Assembly: GCA_947623225.1 (NCBI GenBank)
Contig: CANQGO010000016.1
Location: 1-38,691, forward strand
Direction of reading: 5' to 3'
Origin: an uncultured Clostridia bacterium
GTDB lineage: Bacteria > Bacillota > Clostridia > Christensenellales > CAG-314
DNA: 38,691 nucleotides
The translations under genes were made by a program, and so were the position numbers. The notes below the pieces were generated by a model. It had not been told where the DNA came from and did no database searches. It saw nothing but the letters and a program-made list of their open reading frames with translations. Positions 28,692-38,691 of the stretch are shown here, in pieces (within the stretch, counting starts at the first letter, position 1; the number at the start of each line of letters is the position of its first letter).

Positions 28692-28781
28692 CACTTTTTG
28701 CAAATTGCTTGTCCGCTTCCGCCCGAAATACTCTATAACGCGCATACGTAGTGCGTTTTCACGGCAAAATTTTTTTCCGGT

Positions 28782-28810
28782 TTGACAATTGCCGTGCAAT
28801 GTACTACAAT
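28782..28810 (+). promoter_or_regulatory. Promoter of the metallo-hydrolase gene
   Basis: TTGACA (28782-28787), 17-bp spacer, TACAAT (28805-28810). Confidence 0.85.
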
Positions 28811-28839
28811 TTGAGTATATTGCGGCACGGAGGTGCGAT

Positions 28840-29484
28840 ATGAAGATACAATATCTCGGTCATGCGAGTTTCAGGATCATAAGCGATATGGGCACTACCA
28901 TAGTGACCGACCCGTACAAGGCGGACATGGTGGGCTTTGCCATGACGCCGGTGCGCTGCGACGCGGTCACCGTATCCCATCATCACGGCGATCACGACTG
29001 CATGGACGGCATCCTGGGCGACCCTGCCATACTGGATCGCGCTGGCGAGTGTACGGCGGACGATATAGCGATAGAGAGCCTTTCCTCTTTCCACGACGAC
29101 GCGCGCGGTGCCAAGCGGGGCAAGAACCTCGTATTCACCTTCGCCGCGGACGGTCTGCGCGTGGTGCATATGGGCGATATAGGCTGCTTCGACGCAAGTC
29201 TCGCCTCTCGTATACGCGGCTGCGACGTGCTCATGATCCCCGTGGGCGGCACTTTCACCGTGGACGCACGCGGCGCCAAGCAGTACGTGGACGCAGTCCG
29301 ACCCGGTATAGTCATTCCCATGCACTACAGGAGCGCGGAGCATCACTTCGACGTGGACGGCGTGGACAAGTTCCTCTCCCTGTTCGACGCCGACGCGGTG
29401 TACGACGCCGGCACGACTCTATGTATAGACGACCGCCCCGAGCCGCCTACACGCGTGGCGGTGATGACCCGTTTCGTCGACTGA
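28840..29484 (+). CDS. Metallo-beta-lactamase-fold hydrolase (UlaG-like)
   Basis: The product has 214 residues. ATG 28840 has GGAGG 6 bp upstream. The metal-binding signature HxHxDH is H47, H49, D51, H52 in SHHHGDHD; VVHMGDIG and IPMHYRS supply later ligands. The short UlaG/YtnP-like form acts on unknown phosphoester or lactone substrates in the cytoplasm (no signal peptide). It is monocistronic, and its stop lies 66 bp before the lipoprotein promoter. Confidence 0.9.
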   Translation: MKIQYLGHASFRIISDMGTTIVTDPYKADMVGFAMTPVRCDAVTVSHHHGDHDCMDGILGDPAILDRAGECTADDIAIESLSSFHDDARGAKRGKNLVFTFAADGLRVVHMGDIGCFDASLASRIRGCDVLMIPVGGTFTVDARGAKQYVDAVRPGIVIPMHYRSAEHHFDVDGVDKFLSLFDADAVYDAGTTLCIDDRPEPPTRVAVMTRFVD

Positions 29485-29550
29485 ACGCAATAGAGACGGA
29501 CAATTTTACACTTTTTTATTATATTTTATCGATTTTTACCTCTATTTTGT

Positions 29551-29580
29551 TTGACAAAACCCCACGGGGGGGGGTATAAT
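29551..29580 (+). promoter_or_regulatory. Promoter with G9 tract in spacer (putative phase-variable)
   Basis: TTGACA (29551-29556) and TATAAT (29575-29580) are both perfect, but the spacer is 18 bp and contains nine consecutive G (29566-29574). Slipped-strand changes in that run would alter spacer length; loss of one G gives the optimal 17 bp. Confidence 0.8.
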
Positions 29581-29586
29581 CAACCT

Positions 29587-29694
29587 ACCGACTTTGTTTT
29601 CGATACTTATACAGCCTGAAACGTAATAGTAAGTATATAAAAAAGTTTGAGTTATATACTTCACGCGAACGGGCGCATAGTCGCCTGTTTTTTT
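29587..29694 (+). promoter_or_regulatory. Structured leader with alternative hairpins before lipoprotein gene
   Basis: The segment TAAGTAT at 29630-29636 can pair with ATACTTA (29603-29609), or, as part of AAGTATATAA (29631-29640), with TTATATACTT (29652-29661). The two folds exclude each other, and an intrinsic terminator follows. This is the layout of an attenuator or riboswitch, but no known aptamer is recognised. Confidence 0.45.
29668..29694 (+). terminator. Intrinsic terminator inside the lipoprotein leader
   Basis: AACGGGCG (29668-29675) pairs with CGCCTGTT (29682-29689, one G-T) around CATAGT and runs into seven T. It lies 28 bp before the ATG at 29723, so full-length mRNA requires read-through. 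CTGTTT (29685-29690) can alternatively pair with AAACAG (29697-29702). Confidence 0.7.
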
Positions 29695-29722
29695 ATAAAC
29701 AGACGCCATACGAGAGACCGAT

Positions 29723-32700
29723 ATGAAAAGAAAATTATTCAAAATCGCTATATTTGCCCTGTTGTTCGCGCTGTCTGTGACGGCGTTGGCACTCGCCGCA
29801 TGCAAGCCGGATGATCCCGTCACTCCGCCGGGACCCGAGCCGTCTGCACAGGTCACCGTCACGGTGGACTTCGACCTGGAAGGCGCGGAGGACGCTACCT
29901 TTACCATAGACGCGGGCGCGAACTTCTATTCGCGGCTGCAGGAAGTGGTCAGGCCTATAACCGGCCTCGTATTCGACGGCTACTACCTCGACGGCGTTGC
30001 CGTCACGGCTCAGACTGCCGCTCCCGACCATGACTTCACCGTCACGGCACATTGGCTCGTGCCCTATAGCGTAGAAGTGTACCTCGAGGACCTCGAGGGC
30101 AACTTCACCAAGGATAACGCGCGTACACGCTCGTACACGGGCGCACGCGGCGGCAAGGCTACTGCCGAGGCGCAGAGCATAGAGGGCTTCGAGTGGGATG
30201 AGTCCCACCCCGACAACGTCACCGAGAGCACATTGACCGACGCCGGTACGACGCTCAGACTGTACTACAAACGCGCGTTGTATACCCTCTCTTTCGACAA
30301 GGGCAATGCAACTGCGGCTACAGGCGAGATGGGATCCCTCTCCGTCAAGTACGGTCAGAGCATATCCCTGCCCGCTTGCGGTTTCACTTCCGCTACCGCT
30401 CGGTTTGCCGGGTACAATACCCGCACCGACAACGGCGGTACGGCATACTCCGTGGGCGACAGCATCACCATGCAGGGCAATATCACCCTGTACGCGGTGT
30501 GGATGGCTACAGTCCATCAGACGGTGTGGCTGGAGAGCGTGGAGACGGACGGCGTATTCGATACGAGCGACACCGTCACATTCGAGGCGGTGGTGGGCAG
30601 TTTCGTCAACGCCCGCGACTACGACACCTCTCGCTATACCCGTGCCGGTGAGCACGAGGGCACCGTGGGCAGCGGTACTGTCGCGGAGAACGGTCTCTCG
30701 CTGACTACGTACCACACCTTGCGCGTATTCACCGTCACCTATGCCGACGGTACGGATAGAACGGAAAGCGTCAAGTACGGCAGACAACACACCGTACTCG
30801 AGGCTCCCGTAAGCGATACGGAAGAGGTAATTATGTACTGCACTTCCGCCACGGGCAACGGCCGCGACTATAACTTCGGCGATACCTTCACCGTGACGTC
30901 GGATATCACCCTGTACCCCGTGATCGTGGATATATTCACCGACGCGGCAGGCAGCGGCGACACGCTCCGCCTCCGTCGTAACTTCTCGGGCAGAGGCGCG
31001 GCTGTGCTGGTGCGCGGCGGCGAGGAATTGCCCGGCTTCGTGACCATCACGACCTACGGCGATATGATCATCGTGGACTTCGACGTGACCACGTATACAG
31101 ATGACGGTGAGGTGGATACCGTCTACAACGGCCGCGTCACCGACGCAGAAGGCCACAAGTTCAGCTACCGCGACGAGGAATTGTACGGTACGTATATATA
31201 CTACGACTACCTGAGCGATGAGCTGGTCATGGCACTGCTGGCGTTCGACGGGTATAGCACGGGCACCCTCGGTATCCCCGACCCCGACTCCGTAGACGAT
31301 AGGATAGCATTTTATTGGATATATAGATACGAGTACCTTCCCGATACGGACGACTATCTCGTGTACTACTACCTGCCCGCCGACCCTGAGAATACTCAGT
31401 CACGGACCTACTTCAAGGTCGTCAAGGATCCTCAGACTATAGAAGACGTGACCCTGGACGGCTACTTCATGGAGTTAGGCGAGGAGGGCTACTACGAGTG
31501 GCAACTCGTCCGCAACGGCGAGGTGCAGGACGTCCTCTTCGTCCCGAACGGCTACGGCGAAGCCACCCTGTACGATATCAGCATGGACGCGGATGGCAAT
31601 AGAGAACTCCTGCCATATCAGAGCGGTCACTACTTCAGTTCGGATATCAAGGGCGAATACGAGTTCGTCGTGAACGACAAAGTGGAGTTCTACTTCATCC
31701 TGAAGGCACAGCAGTATGAGGGCGAGACCTATTACTTCTTCCTGCAACGCGGCGAAGAGTACGGCGTATACCTGCAAAACGAGCAGGAGTACCCCCAAAT
31801 ATACCTCGACGGCTACGGCGGAGCAGCCTACTATACCGACGTATCCGATACGGAAGGCACCATCGGCTACTATACCATAACCGACCAAAACGGCGACTAC
31901 GTGGTGATCGTCACCTTCATGGACAGCACTCTCGGTGAGTTGGCTGTGCACGTGACATTGCCCGATGGCGAAGAGTACGGCACCTACGAAGTGTACGACG
32001 ACGGTCTCGTCATAGTGGACAACGTTGTCACTCAGTACCTCGGCCACTCCTCCGTCATAGTTATACCGGACGGCGTCACGGCTATAGAGGCAAGGGTGTT
32101 TGCCAACGTCAGCCTCACCTCCGTGACTTTCCCGAGTTCATTGACATATATAGGCGACTACGCCTTTGAAAACAGCAGCGCGTCCGGCGGCAACTCCCTC
32201 AGGACGGTCTACTTCCTCGGCGAGATTCCTCCCACACTGGGCGAGGACGTGTTCCGCTGGATCAAGGGCAACTTCACTATCGTCGTGCCCGACGGCTGCG
32301 AGCAGATCTATCGCGAGGCATTCGCGACAGCCACGCCTTCCCAGCCGAGTGGCTACGCCGTATACGTCGTCAGCCGCGCAGAGCAGGCAAATAAGCCTCT
32401 CTACGAAGTGGTGGACGGCACATTGGTGAGCTACAACAACAAGGACGAGGACCCCTCCGACGTGCATGTGGTCATCCCCGAAGGCGTCACCGCTATAGCC
32501 GACGGCGTATTCAACGGCATCACGTATATCACATCCGTCGACCTCGCGGGCGTACGCACCATAGGTGCCCGCGCCTTCTACGGCTGCACGGGTCTCACCG
32601 AGATCATCGGCGGCGAGCACGTCACGGATATAGGCAGCGAGGCGTTCTACGGTTGCACGGGTCTCACCGAGTTGGAGATGGACGCTATAGTCAATATAGG

Positions 32701-33991
32701 CGCGCAAGCATTCCTCGAGTGTTACTCCCTCAGCCGCTTCACGGCGGGCGAGCACCTCGCGTCTGTGGGCGAAGCCGCATTCTCACTGTGCTCGGTCACG
32801 TTCAATGAGGACGAGAGCGTATTCTACCTTCACGACTTCGTACTCGTGCTCCGCGGTACCACTCCGCCCACTCTGGGTCAGAAGCCCTTCGACCGCACTC
32901 AACCCCGCGTGTATGTGGATAGCTACGAGACGGGCGTGGAGTTTGCCGAGTACGGCAATTGGCACCAATACGTGCGCTACCTGCGCGTGGCGTCGGATGA
33001 CGAACCTCGCACTATGTATAGCGTCGAAAACTTCGGCGATACCCTCGTGCTCGATGACCGCGCCCTCTTCGGCGACGGCAGTCACTACGGCTTGTACAAG
33101 TGGGAGGACGCCTACACCCTCGTCGTGTGCTGGTTCGAGTATGAGTCTATGAACGGTAGTTTCAGTACTCTGACCGTCCGCGCCGAGCTTAACTCCGACG
33201 ATTGGCTGACCGGTATCCAATTCGAAGATACGCCTTACACATTCGTGGACGCCGGCACGACCCTCACCTATAGCCACGTGGACTCCGCCGGTCTGGACCT
33301 CACCGTCACGGTGGGCACCGGCGAGGCGACCTGGGGCGGTACTCGCGTCACCGTCGAAGTGGTCAACTATCGCACCCGGTTCACTCTGGATGGCTACGTG
33401 TATACCCTGTCTTTGTTCAACAACGCCGGCACCCTCACCTATAGCTACTCCCGTAGCAAGATAGTGGTGGAGCGCACCTATACCGCCGCCGACGGCAGCA
33501 GTATAACCATTCGCTTCGGCGACTATATCACCGCCAACGGTTGCCTCAAGAACGTCGACGGTATCACAGGTCCGTACGGCAATGGTCTCGAGACCACTGC
33601 ATACGGCTGGTCCCTCACCGAGTTGAATGAGGACACGTACACGTACTTGATACCTTGGCGTAGCGATAACTATACCATCACCATCCACCTCAGCGGCGAT
33701 ACCTTCACCTACGAGTGGACCAAGTCCGCTCAGTACAGGTACCTGACCGCCGCCGACGGCACTCGTATCACCGCGCTGGTGAGCACGGACGGCACCGTGC
33801 AGTCTATGCATATCATCTTCGCTACGGCGAGCGGCACGGTCGAGTTGCCTTGCAAGATAGTCGGCAACCATAGCAACGAGTACATAGTGGAGGCTACCTC
33901 CGACACCGACGAAGGTGCCGAGTTCGCAGGCTCCTATACTATCACTCTGGACCTTGAACACAATTCGTTTACATATGAGCGGCAGTCCTGA
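29723..33991 (+). CDS. Giant surface lipoprotein with InlB B-type and BspA-type leucine-rich repeats
   Basis: The product has 1422 residues. The signal peptide ends in a perfect lipobox LAAC (Cys27), followed by a proline/acid-rich linker, so it is lipid-anchored outside the membrane. Residues about 45-400 hold three or four Listeria-Bacteroides (InlB B/Flg_new-type) beta modules ending in phrases such as ITLYAVW. Residues about 400-770 are tyrosine- and acid-rich beta structure without a family I can name. Residues about 775-1030 are BspA/TpLRR-type leucine-rich repeats (VVIPEGVTAIADGVF, IGARAFYGCTGLTEI, IGSEAFYGCTGLTEL). The C-terminal 350 residues are repeated beta-rich, lipocalin-like units. 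There is no LPXTG. An adhesive or carbohydrate/host-binding role is inferred. The start has only a GAGAG site, so translation may be modest. Confidence 0.88.
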   Translation: MKRKLFKIAIFALLFALSVTALALAACKPDDPVTPPGPEPSAQVTVTVDFDLEGAEDATFTIDAGANFYSRLQEVVRPITGLVFDGYYLDGVAVTAQTAAPDHDFTVTAHWLVPYSVEVYLEDLEGNFTKDNARTRSYTGARGGKATAEAQSIEGFEWDESHPDNVTESTLTDAGTTLRLYYKRALYTLSFDKGNATAATGEMGSLSVKYGQSISLPACGFTSATARFAGYNTRTDNGGTAYSVGDSITMQGNITLYAVWMATVHQTVWLESVETDGVFDTSDTVTFEAVVGSFVNARDYDTSRYTRAGEHEGTVGSGTVAENGLSLTTYHTLRVFTVTYADGTDRTESVKYGRQHTVLEAPVSDTEEVIMYCTSATGNGRDYNFGDTFTVTSDITLYPVIVDIFTDAAGSGDTLRLRRNFSGRGAAVLVRGGEELPGFVTITTYGDMIIVDFDVTTYTDDGEVDTVYNGRVTDAEGHKFSYRDEELYGTYIYYDYLSDELVMALLAFDGYSTGTLGIPDPDSVDDRIAFYWIYRYEYLPDTDDYLVYYYLPADPENTQSRTYFKVVKDPQTIEDVTLDGYFMELGEEGYYEWQLVRNGEVQDVLFVPNGYGEATLYDISMDADGNRELLPYQSGHYFSSDIKGEYEFVVNDKVEFYFILKAQQYEGETYYFFLQRGEEYGVYLQNEQEYPQIYLDGYGGAAYYTDVSDTEGTIGYYTITDQNGDYVVIVTFMDSTLGELAVHVTLPDGEEYGTYEVYDDGLVIVDNVVTQYLGHSSVIVIPDGVTAIEARVFANVSLTSVTFPSSLTYIGDYAFENSSASGGNSLRTVYFLGEIPPTLGEDVFRWIKGNFTIVVPDGCEQIYREAFATATPSQPSGYAVYVVSRAEQANKPLYEVVDGTLVSYNNKDEDPSDVHVVIPEGVTAIADGVFNGITYITSVDLAGVRTIGARAFYGCTGLTEIIGGEHVTDIGSEAFYGCTGLTELEMDAIVNIGAQAFLECYSLSRFTAGEHLASVGEAAFSLCSVTFNEDESVFYLHDFVLVLRGTTPPTLGQKPFDRTQPRVYVDSYETGVEFAEYGNWHQYVRYLRVASDDEPRTMYSVENFGDTLVLDDRALFGDGSHYGLYKWEDAYTLVVCWFEYESMNGSFSTLTVRAELNSDDWLTGIQFEDTPYTFVDAGTTLTYSHVDSAGLDLTVTVGTGEATWGGTRVTVEVVNYRTRFTLDGYVYTLSLFNNAGTLTYSYSRSKIVVERTYTAADGSSITIRFGDYITANGCLKNVDGITGPYGNGLETTAYGWSLTELNEDTYTYLIPWRSDNYTITIHLSGDTFTYEWTKSAQYRYLTAADGTRITALVSTDGTVQSMHIIFATASGTVELPCKIVGNHSNEYIVEATSDTDEGAEFAGSYTITLDLEHNSFTYERQS

Positions 33992-33998
33992 TACTGCC
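33981..33998 (+). other. Hairpin around the lipoprotein stop codon
   Basis: GGCAGT (33981-33986) pairs with ACTGCC (33993-33998), with the TGA stop in the loop. It lacks a good T-run, so it is more likely a read-through or processing hairpin between the two lipoprotein genes than a full terminator. Confidence 0.35.
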
Positions 33999-34036
33999 CT
34001 CTTGTGATAAAAAAATCTTTTTATGGAGGAAACATT

Positions 34037-37000
34037 ATGAAAAAAACAGCTTCACGATGGTTGCTGTGTATAGTTCTCGTGCTGGCACTGACGGCGAGTT
34101 TCGCACTCACTGCCTGCCACAAGACGTATACGGCTACCTTTGTGGGAGGCGACGGTGCCACCGGCACAGCCCCTGCTCCTATAGAGTCGGAGGGCGAGAT
34201 CACACTCCCGCAGAACACGTTCACGCGTGACGGCTACACCTTCTCCGGTTGGTCGGACGGTTCCGAGACCTACCAAGCAGGTGCTACCTATACGCTGACC
34301 AAGGACACCGAGTTCACGGCTCAGTGGACGTCGAACGGCTCTACGCCTCCCGCGACCAAGTACACGCTGACCTTTGCTCTGGGCGATCACGCAGCGTCCG
34401 ATGCTACCGCACCCGCCGCTCAGCAACTGGAAGCCGGTGCCGAGTACACCCTGCCCGACGGACCCAAGGCGGCAGATGGCTACACCTTTGCAGGCTGGGG
34501 CGCGAGCAAACTCGCTGCCGGCAGCCAATACACCATGCCCGCGTCTGACACGACCCTGACCGCTCAGTGGACGTCGAACGGACCTGCTCCTGCGACTCCC
34601 TTCACCACCGGCTTGTTCAATGGTATTGCGGAGTTCCAGTACGAGGAACGCGCTTGCATTATCTCCTTCAACAATGAAGACTTCGGCGAAGATGGCGAGG
34701 AGATGGCAGGAATGGCTATTTCGATGATCATGATCGGCGAGGGTGAGGTACAATGTGAATACTTGTACAAGATCCAAGACAACAAGATCATCTTCTACGC
34801 TATGGAAGACGACGGCGACTCTTTCTTGCCTACAAACTCCATTACCGGTACTATCTCCGGCAATAAGCTCACCATCAATATCGATGGAAATATAGGCTAC
34901 GACTACGAAGGCGGCCAAGTACAAGTGAAGACTTCCTTCACCGTAAATATGTACAAGTTGACTGTCTCCGGCACGGTCCATTCCGACGGCGAGCATTGGG
35001 TAAGCGAAGGCACCCACATGTTGTTCTTTACTTTCCTGTTCATGTATGAAGATATCCCTTCCGCTACACTCAACGGTCAGACTTTCGACATTGAGGACGA
35101 AGAAGCAATCATGCCCGCTCAGGACAGCACTCTCGAGTGCAGCGGTCTGTACTTCCTTACGTACTCTTTCGGTACTGACAGCCACGCGGCAGAGGGTGTG
35201 AAGGTCCCCGAGCGCGACGGCGGTCCCGAGGGAGACGAGCTTTATCTTCCCTCTTACTTCGAGGCTGAGGAAGGCTGGAAGTTCGGCGGCTGGAGAGACG
35301 AAGACGGCACGGAATATCCTTCTAATTCGTATGAACCCTTCATCATGCCCGATCACAATGTGACCCTGACGGCTATCTGGATAGAGGTACCGTCCCTCAC
35401 AGATTACAACGGAATATGGAAACTTTCTCAACCTGTTAGCATTGGCTTCTACGATGCTATAGACTTCATCAAGATCGTAGGCGACTATGAAATATGGTTG
35501 CATGAGCAAGGAAGTAGTTTTACGCAAAAGAACAATGCGGACACCGAGAAGGTGGACGGTATCATCTCCGCAGAGTGGAACCCGACCTATACCTCCGGTT
35601 GCAGGATCGTATTCACGTCGGCTGACCAACTCGATATGTACGTCTATAGTAATGGGGATTTTGAAGGAGAACCCACTCATTTGACGCTTACTCGTGCTAC
35701 GACGGTGAAGGTCACATTTGACCTCGGCGATTGCACGGACGGCACTGCTCCCGATCCTATCGAAGTATTGCCCGGCGATACCGTTGCAAACTCGGATATA
35801 CCCGATGATCCTACTTGGGAACACCACAAGTTCCTCGGTTGGTACGCAGAGGGCGCGGAAGAGCCGTTTGACCTCTACACGACTGCTATCGAGAGCGATA
35901 TTACCCTGACTGCTCATTGGCAGGATATGAGCGCGACCAAGGTGACCGTTCACTTTGACGCCAACGCCGGCAGCGACAACGTCGAGGGTATGCCTCAGGA
36001 CGCTCAGGTGACTTGGGGCGATCACTTGACCAAGCCCACCGAGATCCCCACTCGTGAAGGATACAAATTCGCTCACTGGTCTACTTCTACCTATTCTACA
36101 GGTTCGGAATTTGACTATGCGAACAACGTCATAGAGGAAGAACTCACTCTCTACGCAGTTTGGAAGAAGGCGGTCACCGTCACTTTCAGCGTGGAAGGCG
36201 ACACTACCAAGGTCCCCGCTATCCATACCTACCAGGGAGAAGAAGAGACTCTGCCCGGATATGACGGCAACAACGCTGCAGGACACGCTTTCGTCGGTTG
36301 GAAACAACAAGGCGACAACGACCTGCTTGAGACACTCGACATTTACAACGAAGATATCACACTCGAGGCTGTATTCGGCGTGATCTACACTCCGGAGAGA
36401 GGCTCTGAGGGTTACGGCGACTTCATCGTCCGCGATGACAATCTCGTTGTATTCAGTGGCTATACCTATTCGTACACGAAGGAAGGAAACGTTTACACAT
36501 TCGGTAGCAGATATGCTCAAAGCGTTTGCAAAGTGAATGACGATACTCATACTTACGCAAGGGCAGACATGTTCGCAGGCTCTTACCAAGACAACGACCG
36601 GAAAGGTACTCTGGAACTGGACGGCTTCGGCGGTGCTACCTTCACGGTAGGCAGTGCCAAGACCACAGGTACATATACCTACGAGGAGTACGAATCTGTC
36701 ACCGTTACATTCGACGGCAAGCAGACTACGCTTGAATGGTCATACAATGATTACGAGTTCGTCGGTCTGCTGACCATAGGCGATGAGTCCTATGTATTCG
36801 GCAATTACCAAGTAACCCTGCTGCTCAATGGTTTGTATGAAGGTCAGAGCAGCCCTTACGAATACCAGATTACCTACGGTGAACTGTTCGAGATCGATTC
36901 CGTATTGGAAATGATCATCGAGATCCCCGAGGGCAAGACGCTCTACGGCTGGCAAAAAGAGAATGGAAGTTTCCTCGGCGAAGAAGAGGCTATCACTGCT

Positions 37001-38691
37001 CCTTTGACGCTGACTGCCGTATCTCATATCTGCGTCAGACTTGACGGCAAAGACGATGACAACAACGTCACTGTTCTCTGGGACTTGGAAGATACCGGTT
37101 CCATAGAAGTGACCTTCCCCGACGGCTCCGACCTCACACGTGACGGTTACACATTCGGCGGATGGAAGGCACACGACGATTCTTCCGCGGAGCCGCATAT
37201 CTATGCAGCCAATGAAAAGCTTACCGTTGAGGAAAGCACGATTTTCGACGCGGTATGGAACGGACAGGGTACCCCCCCCTTCACGACTGAAGCAATTAAC
37301 GCGTCTTTGGAGACGGAAGACCAATCAAGTTCTGTTGGCTTAGCTTCAGATGGTAGCGGATACGTTGTATGCAACGAAGAAGGCGATGCTGAATTCTCCT
37401 ATACAATTGCAGCCGACGGAACTGTCACAATTACGATCGATCAGGAAACTTCGGAAGAGTCGGGCGTTACATTCGTAAGCGGTTCATTGCACGGGCGCAA
37501 TCTTGTACTCACATTCTCATATAAATATTTCAGTAATGTGACTACAATTAAGTTTGAAGGTAAACTGATTCTTGTTAAAACCCAAAATTTGCAGTATGAA
37601 GGCGAAAACATGGATTTGGAATGTTACTATTTCGCCGGTGCAAAAATACCAGTTTCAGGCTACTTCGAAGATAAAACTCTCAAAGAGATCCAAGTAAACG
37701 GAACAGCGTTGTCTCAGGACGAGATAGCAAACGGCTATACCGTCCCCGATGAGGACGTAGTGCTTACCTTCGTATACGAAAGCGAAAAAGAGCCGGAGCC
37801 GACCACAACGTATACCATCACCTACAAACCCGGTGATGGTGCAACGGGTGAGGAATATCAACACAAAGTCGAACAGGCAGAGTACAAATTCCTCTATCCC
37901 TACAATGAAAGTCTCAAATATACGCGTGAAGGTTATTACTTCGGCGGCTGGAAGATCGAAGGCGACGACAGCGGCAAACTCTATCAAGGCAACGACTCAT
38001 ACACCCTCACGGGCGATATAGTCGTCACCGCACAGTGGAATCAACCTATCAAGGTCACGATCGAGGGACTGAACGAGTCCGGCGTCGAGGAGAACATAAG
38101 GGCATTGACATACGATAAAGGTACGCACACGCTTACTCTTTCGCCCTCGGAAGCAAAAAGCTTTGTTTTCTTCAAAGACGTAGCTGATGCCCGCTTGGAC
38201 TACATTGAGCGTGATGGCTTCACCGCAAGTTGGTCGTGCAGTTGCCATCCGGGAAAGACATATGCTCCGGGCGACGCTCACGCATTCACAGGCGACGCAA
38301 CGATCACTGTCACTTGGATACGGAAACCCTTTACTTCCGATCACTTCGCAGATAATTTCGGCGAATATACGACAGATACTCCGCTCAGCTTCTATGACTG
38401 TGACTTTGTCAAAGTAGTGTTTAACAGAGACGGTATTGCTTTCTATGAAAAAGGCGATTCCGATGACTATGCAACGCAATTGGGAACAATTAAGTATGAA
38501 GAGAGCCGGATCACCGGTATGATTGGTAAATACGAAATCACCATCACCTTCGAAGGTGATACGATGACAGTCGCATGGTCGTTTAATGGTAGTGGCTCCG
38601 GTACTCTCACCAGAGGCGGACAGGAGCAGGTCACCAAGTACGGCGTGACGTATTCGTCCGGCGAGCACGAGGCGACAGATTTGCCCTCCGG
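34037..38691 (+). CDS. Giant surface lipoprotein with many InlB B-type repeats (3' end outside window)
   Basis: The frame is open from ATG 34037 (GGAGG 8 bp upstream) to the window end, giving at least 1551 residues. The signal peptide ends in lipobox LTAC, Cys27. Listeria-Bacteroides (InlB B) modules, each with a GYxFxGW-like core and an LTAxW-like end, lie at about 31-97, 109-178, 379-447, 556-628, 635-709, 714-781, 998-1073 and 1258-1333. They alternate with lipocalin-like beta domains (about 185-375, 455-553, 795-960, 1085-1185 and from about 1365), the first of which starts PFTTGLFNG. It lies 45 bp after the previous lipoprotein with no separate promoter seen, so the two are probably cotranscribed. 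An in-frame C8 run lies at codons 1079-1081. Confidence 0.88.
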   Translation, partial: MKKTASRWLLCIVLVLALTASFALTACHKTYTATFVGGDGATGTAPAPIESEGEITLPQNTFTRDGYTFSGWSDGSETYQAGATYTLTKDTEFTAQWTSNGSTPPATKYTLTFALGDHAASDATAPAAQQLEAGAEYTLPDGPKAADGYTFAGWGASKLAAGSQYTMPASDTTLTAQWTSNGPAPATPFTTGLFNGIAEFQYEERACIISFNNEDFGEDGEEMAGMAISMIMIGEGEVQCEYLYKIQDNKIIFYAMEDDGDSFLPTNSITGTISGNKLTINIDGNIGYDYEGGQVQVKTSFTVNMYKLTVSGTVHSDGEHWVSEGTHMLFFTFLFMYEDIPSATLNGQTFDIEDEEAIMPAQDSTLECSGLYFLTYSFGTDSHAAEGVKVPERDGGPEGDELYLPSYFEAEEGWKFGGWRDEDGTEYPSNSYEPFIMPDHNVTLTAIWIEVPSLTDYNGIWKLSQPVSIGFYDAIDFIKIVGDYEIWLHEQGSSFTQKNNADTEKVDGIISAEWNPTYTSGCRIVFTSADQLDMYVYSNGDFEGEPTHLTLTRATTVKVTFDLGDCTDGTAPDPIEVLPGDTVANSDIPDDPTWEHHKFLGWYAEGAEEPFDLYTTAIESDITLTAHWQDMSATKVTVHFDANAGSDNVEGMPQDAQVTWGDHLTKPTEIPTREGYKFAHWSTSTYSTGSEFDYANNVIEEELTLYAVWKKAVTVTFSVEGDTTKVPAIHTYQGEEETLPGYDGNNAAGHAFVGWKQQGDNDLLETLDIYNEDITLEAVFGVIYTPERGSEGYGDFIVRDDNLVVFSGYTYSYTKEGNVYTFGSRYAQSVCKVNDDTHTYARADMFAGSYQDNDRKGTLELDGFGGATFTVGSAKTTGTYTYEEYESVTVTFDGKQTTLEWSYNDYEFVGLLTIGDESYVFGNYQVTLLLNGLYEGQSSPYEYQITYGELFEIDSVLEMIIEIPEGKTLYGWQKENGSFLGEEEAITAPLTLTAVSHICVRLDGKDDDNNVTVLWDLEDTGSIEVTFPDGSDLTRDGYTFGGWKAHDDSSAEPHIYAANEKLTVEESTIFDAVWNGQGTPPFTTEAINASLETEDQSSSVGLASDGSGYVVCNEEGDAEFSYTIAADGTVTITIDQETSEESGVTFVSGSLHGRNLVLTFSYKYFSNVTTIKFEGKLILVKTQNLQYEGENMDLECYYFAGAKIPVSGYFEDKTLKEIQVNGTALSQDEIANGYTVPDEDVVLTFVYESEKEPEPTTTYTITYKPGDGATGEEYQHKVEQAEYKFLYPYNESLKYTREGYYFGGWKIEGDDSGKLYQGNDSYTLTGDIVVTAQWNQPIKVTIEGLNESGVEENIRALTYDKGTHTLTLSPSEAKSFVFFKDVADARLDYIERDGFTASWSCSCHPGKTYAPGDAHAFTGDATITVTWIRKPFTSDHFADNFGEYTTDTPLSFYDCDFVKVVFNRDGIAFYEKGDSDDYATQLGTIKYEESRITGMIGKYEITITFEGDTMTVAWSFNGSGSGTLTRGGQEQVTKYGVTYSSGEHEATDLPS
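37272..37279 (+). repeat. C8 homopolymer inside coding sequence
   Basis: Eight C encode part of Thr-Pro-Pro at residues 1079-1081 of the second giant lipoprotein. A one-base slip would shift the frame and truncate the protein. The frame is open as sequenced. Confidence 0.85.

What the first reader, a model, noticed from the sequence alone, without database searches (positions are those of the whole stretch)
29551..29580. G9 run between perfect -35 and -10 boxes: candidate phase-variable promoter
Nine G inside an 18-bp spacer is a classical contingency design: slippage changes spacer length and switches transcription. It controls giant surface lipoproteins, the type of gene commonly phase-varied. 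The current 18-bp state would be moderate, 17 bp strong.
Basis: partly seen in the sequence, partly recalled or inferred. Interest (0 to 1): 0.75.

Follow-up and report, generated by a model that had tools for sequence, protein, structure and literature searches.

The report
Poly-G promoter switch for surface lipoproteins
An uncultured gut bacterium carries a run of nine G's between the two contact sites of a promoter for giant surface proteins; the same device recurs at many surface-protein genes across its genus and in other gut bacteria, so it is probably a slippage-driven on/off switch of a type known from Neisseria and Treponema, although no switching has been seen directly.

Summary
It is not chance. 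The same genome has about eight such promoters; 20 of 25 genomes of the genus have them (reversed-pattern controls zero). In an unbiased census, 54 of 104 G9 runs in the genus sit directly on a TATNNT (about 1 expected). Runs abutting TATAAT are bimodal: 0-2 G or 8-11 G. Tract lengths (G9 56%, G10 30%) match published phase-variable Campylobacter tracts (53%, 26%). Downstream genes are mostly secreted or lipoproteins (52/77 versus 8/25 for ordinary promoters). Homologous promoters differ in tract length in 29 of 52 pairs; one contig holds G8, G9 and G10 copies. Best explanation: slippage-driven transcriptional phase variation, as in Neisseria porA and Treponema tp0126. Not shown: length variation within a population, or any expression effect. 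"17 bp strong, 18 moderate" is unproven: poly-G promoters cluster at 18-19 bp, ordinary ones at 17. Tract length is partly genome-typical and paralogues often share it, so switching may be slow or the tract partly constrained.

The parts
29551..29556 (+). -35 hexamer TTGACA
   Evidence: (12 of 12 consensus matches with the -10)
29557..29565 (+). 9-bp non-G part of the spacer, AAACCCCAC; this length (9) is the commonest in the genus (49 of 86) and it ends in AC in most
29566..29574 (+). G9 homopolymer, proposed slippage tract, abutting the -10
29575..29580 (+). -10 hexamer TATAAT
29581..29722 (+). 5' leader of 142 nt with conserved AGCCTnAAACGtAATA box (29613-29628) and an intrinsic-terminator-like hairpin (29667-29690 plus T run); the layout is kept in 6 of 8 orthologues, so a second, attenuation-like layer is possible
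   Evidence: no Rfam match
29723..33991 (+). 1422-aa lipoprotein with lipobox (LALAAC), BspA-type leucine-rich repeats and a Listeria-Bacteroides repeat; proposed switched gene
34037..38691 (+). second giant lipoprotein (start ATG 34037 behind GGAGG; lipobox LTAC; runs off the window), 45 bp behind the first, so probably co-transcribed
37272..37279 (+). C8 run inside the second lipoprotein gene (G8 on the - strand): possible additional frameshift tract
28789..29484 (+). upstream metallo-beta-lactamase-fold gene, the syntenic neighbour used to place orthologues; not part of the switch

Best explanation
This is a sigma-A promoter whose spacer holds a slippage-prone G tract directly on the -10. 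Replication slippage adds or removes G's, changes the -35/-10 distance (17 bp at G8, 18 at G9, 19 at G10) and so raises or lowers transcription of the two-gene giant-lipoprotein operon in individual cells: transcriptional phase variation of the porA/tp0126 kind. It is one of a genus-wide set of such promoters that drive mainly secreted and surface proteins and some accessory metabolism. Shown: the architecture, its strong over-representation, the bimodal run length, the surface-gene bias, and tract-length differences between homologous promoters. Inferred: length changes within a population, the effect on transcription, and which length is ON.
For: Exact architecture. 20 of 25 genus genomes carry TTGACA-N6-15-G7-TAT, reversed-pattern controls all 0. 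54 of 104 unselected G9 runs in the genus are followed at once by TATNNT, about 1 expected. G runs abutting TATAAT in perfect promoters: 0-2 G in 53, 3-7 G in none, 8-11 G in 20 (the upper class is over-sampled because many loci were fetched for it, but the empty 3-7 gap is not, and the 49 promoters show it too). Lengths G9 52 and G10 28 of 93; Campylobacter phase-variable tracts peak at 9 (53%) and 10 (26%) (PMC6321876). Secreted/hydrophobic N-terminus 52/77 versus 8/25, p=0.002; 86/112 in other taxa. Homologous promoter pairs differ in tract length in 29 of 52; one contig has TTGACAGATGTTGACC with G10 and G8 and GAAGTTGACC with G9 (L224/L296). At the orthologous lipoprotein promoter the tract is in 3 of 8 species, the others have ordinary spacers. 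A G10 in another surface lipoprotein gene of this genome sits exactly where the frame breaks. The housekeeping aldolase has an ordinary promoter in every genome whose upstream region was read (7), while an accessory aldolase has the tract.
Against: No reads or same-species strains were available, so no polymorphism was seen. Paralogous promoters 5-9% diverged within one genome often keep the same length (four G10 in G006, three G10 in G014). Length is partly genome-typical (permutation p=1e-4), which individually switching loci need not show. MutS1 and MutL are present in this genome, which would lower slippage. Assembled homopolymer lengths in metagenome bins can be wrong by one.
Confidence: 0.72

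Rival explanations
1. The AC-G9/10-TATNNT block is a fixed promoter module: the G tract is a structural element or a regulator's binding site in the spacer that co-regulates surface genes, and its length is held by selection rather than being a switch.
For: Non-G spacer part fixed at 9 bp in 49/86 and ending in AC in most; spacer peak at 18-19 bp; genome-typical tract length; diverged paralogous copies keep the same length.
Against: No intermediate 3-7 G runs exist, as a binding motif would allow. Tract length differs in 29 of 52 homologous pairs. Orthologous promoters lose the tract entirely while the gene stays. G9-10 tracts of the same length occur inside coding genes of this genome.
Confidence: 0.17
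2. The promoter is real and constitutive; the G tract is a neutral by-product of biased slippage in a genome that tolerates G tracts in spacers.
For: Length distribution fits a slippage equilibrium; some tracts lie at spacings of 11-15 bp where a standard promoter would not work.
Against: Half of all G9 runs abut a -10, and the surface-gene bias is not expected of neutral tracts; the ordinary perfect promoters and the housekeeping aldolase promoters lack tracts.
Confidence: 0.08
3. Expression is set mainly by the conserved leader (attenuator/terminator), and the promoter tract matters little.
For: Six of eight orthologues share the AGCCT box and terminator in the leader, including species without a G tract.
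Against: The leader's fold energy is ordinary against shuffles (z=-1.3), no Rfam family matches, and the G005 orthologue has the G9 promoter without that leader.
Confidence: 0.1

Closest known systems
Neisseria meningitidis porA promoter (poly-G between -35 and -10)
   Same: G homopolymer inside the sigma-70 spacer of a surface-protein gene; spacer length set by the number of G (PMC7864442 discussion)
   Different: One locus in a Gram-negative pathogen; here a stereotyped set across a genus of uncultured Clostridia, tract on the -10 in most, switching not demonstrated
Treponema pallidum tp0126 promoter
   Same: Poly-G between -35 and -10 of an outer-membrane protein gene, length-dependent transcription; the tprL tract in vivo is mostly 9 G with 7-11 present (PMC7864442)
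   Different: Reported optimum there is 17 bp in all; the genus here peaks at 18-19 bp
Campylobacter poly-G phasome
   Same: Same length distribution, 9 (53%) and 10 (26%) (PMC6321876)
   Different: There 82% of poly-G tracts lie in open reading frames; here half of G9 runs are promoter elements
Neisseria opc poly-C promoter
   Same: Homopolymer length in a promoter region sets expression, 11 versus 12 C (PMC3447861)
   Different: Poly-C over the -35 region (PMC7864442) rather than poly-G on the -10

Membership tests
Homopolymer-spacer phase-variable promoter (porA/tp0126 type) | Homopolymer located between -35 and -10 of a recognisable promoter | tested here: met
Homopolymer-spacer phase-variable promoter (porA/tp0126 type) | Tract long enough to slip (poly-G of 7 or more) | tested here: met
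   G9; cut-off of 7 used in PMC6321876
Homopolymer-spacer phase-variable promoter (porA/tp0126 type) | Drives a surface-exposed or secreted gene | tested here: met
   lipobox and surface repeat domains
Homopolymer-spacer phase-variable promoter (porA/tp0126 type) | Tract length varies between homologous promoters or strains | tested here: inconclusive
   differs in 29 of 52 homologous pairs, but at this locus the three orthologues with the tract all have G9 and no same-species strain was available
Homopolymer-spacer phase-variable promoter (porA/tp0126 type) | Reversible length variation within one population | not testable with these tools
   no reads held
Homopolymer-spacer phase-variable promoter (porA/tp0126 type) | Transcription depends on tract length | not testable with these tools
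   needs a reporter assay
Invertible-promoter (recombinase) phase variation | Promoter flanked by inverted repeats | not tested
   no dedicated inverted-repeat or recombinase search was made at 29551; a 70-bp inverted copy was seen only at the C37 promoter

The most novel reading that the evidence does not exclude
Tract length is set genome-wide rather than locus by locus: a species-level shift of the slippage equilibrium (for example G9 in G013 and G017, G10 in G006 and G014) lengthens the spacer of the whole surface-gene set at once, so the G tracts act as a shared rheostat on top of random switching.
Probability: 0.12. Interest if true: 0.85.

Novelty: new member of a known kind. Interest (0 to 1): 0.6.

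Why it matters
Promoter-level slippage switches are known from a few loci in pathogens. Here an unnamed genus of uncultured gut Clostridia, and many other animal-associated bacteria in the same scan, use one stereotyped G9/G10-on-the-minus-10 design at many surface-protein genes. If confirmed, commensals hedge their surfaces by transcriptional slippage on a large scale, and a simple sequence pattern predicts the switched genes in metagenomes. It also makes testable whether poly-G spacers have a longer optimum (18-19 bp) than ordinary ones.

Tried and rejected
Rfam on the leader: nothing. Absence of mismatch repair as the cause of tract tolerance: rejected, MutS1 and MutL are present in all but a couple of genomes, including ours. 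A phase-varied essential gene (aldolase) looked like a counter-example, but that gene is an accessory paralogue; the housekeeping copy has an ordinary promoter. G001 C11/C25 and G073 C1/C2 looked like the same promoter with G10 and G9, but the flanks show no significant similarity, so they are not used as evidence. Literature searches found no report of poly-G promoter spacers in gut Clostridia in the held library, which is weak evidence of novelty because most subscription journals are missing.

Full report
Observation. The promoter is exactly as described: TTGACA 29551-29556, AAACCCCAC, G9 29566-29574, TATAAT 29575-29580, spacer 18 bp. It is the only perfect promoter match in 28700-34200. 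The gene behind it starts at 29723 (1422 aa, lipobox, BspA-type leucine-rich repeats and a Listeria-Bacteroides repeat). A second giant lipoprotein starts at 34037 behind a good ribosome site and runs off the window; the 45-bp gap suggests one operon.

More than chance. Runs of G or C in the window stop at 5 except for one 8 and this 9. The genome has 19 G>=8 runs, of which about eight lie in promoter spacers: C4:43647 TTTACA..G10 TATAAT, C14:261, C16:29551, C20:20927, C23 (tract inside a 19-bp spacer), C37, C51, and C32, where the contig begins with the run. C37 and C51 share an identical 258-bp stretch. The pattern TTGACAN6-15 G7 TAT hits 20 of 25 genomes of the genus, with zero hits for the reversed pattern in all 101 genomes searched. 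A census that did not ask for a promoter found 104 exact G9 runs in the genus; by my count of the printed rows 54 are followed directly by TATNNT, against about one expected.

Anatomy of the set. In 86 genus promoters the non-G part of the spacer is 9 bp in 49, its last two bases are mostly AC, and the run is G9 or G10 in nearly all. The spacer peaks at 18 and 19 bp, whereas ordinary perfect promoters of this genome peak at 17 (31 of 46, my count). Run length on the -10 is bimodal: 0-2 or 8-11, nothing between. The length distribution closely matches that of Campylobacter phase-variable tracts (PMC6321876).

What they control. 52 of 77 downstream proteins begin with a strongly hydrophobic segment, many with a lipobox, against 8 of 25 for ordinary perfect promoters (p=0.002). 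These are heuristic gene calls and a hydropathy rule, not a signal-peptide predictor. An accessory aldolase carries the tract in G018 and G004, with an interrupted version in G002; the housekeeping aldolase has an ordinary promoter in each of seven genomes read.

Is the length variable? Orthologues of the window lipoprotein in eight species show the tract in three, always G9, and ordinary spacers in five. So the tract is gained and lost at a fixed promoter. Among 52 homologous promoter pairs, 29 differ in tract length; one contig has three paralogous promoters with G8, G9 and G10. The pairs are not independent. A G10 tract in another lipoprotein gene of this genome lies exactly where the reading frame breaks off and continues in another frame, as in a frameshift switch or an assembly error. 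Against easy switching: several diverged paralogues share a length, length is partly typical of the genome, and mismatch repair genes are present. In meningococci with intact mutS no change was seen at opc in 89 colonies, while loss of mutS raised phase variation (PMC3447861).

Mechanism. Slippage changes the spacer by single bases around 17-19 bp. In T. pallidum tp0126 the same layout gives best transcription at 17 bp (PMC7864442). Whether 17 or 18 is the ON state here cannot be told; the clustering of poly-G promoters at 18-19 argues against simply transferring the 17-bp rule.

Second layer. The leader of this gene holds a conserved AGCCTnAAACGtAATA box and a terminator-like hairpin in six of eight orthologues. 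The box's GCCU could pair with the hairpin's 5' arm, an attenuator-like layout (inference). The G005 orthologue has the G9 promoter without it.

Organism. 

Noticed in passing
window 29581-29722 and orthologues L158-L161, L165: Conserved leader with AGCCTnAAACGtAATA box and an intrinsic terminator upstream of the lipoprotein gene; possible attenuator or unknown regulatory RNA, no Rfam match.
   Followed up: partly
window 37272-37279: C8 run inside the coding region of the second giant lipoprotein; possible frameshift tract in the same operon.
   Followed up: no
L305 (G000:C4:18414-18423): G10 run at the exact point where a giant surface lipoprotein frame stops and continues in another frame: candidate translational phase-variable locus (or assembly error) in the same genome.
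   Followed up: partly
L039 (G000:C37) and L334 (G000:C51): Identical 258-bp promoter cassette on two contigs, with a 70-bp inverted near-copy beyond the gene's end; several poly-G promoters in relatives also lie within a few hundred bases of contig ends, hinting at repeated or recombining surface-gene cassettes.
   Followed up: partly
genus-wide: Tract length is partly a genome-level trait: G006 and G014 nearly all G10, G013, G017 and G003 all G9.
   Followed up: partly
L224 and L296 (CANRKS010000004.1): Three paralogous promoters on one contig of a 'Lapin' gut Bacilli bin with G10, G9 and G8 tracts, upstream of proteins with near-identical signal sequences.
   Followed up: partly
L051, L063, L073, L081, L351: G9/G10-TATNNT preceded by TTGACA at only 11-13 bp, too close for a standard promoter; OFF states, chance hexamers or another promoter type.
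   Followed up: no
G019: The G019 genome (97% complete) gave no MutS1 or MutL match, the only one in the genus with neither.
   Followed up: no
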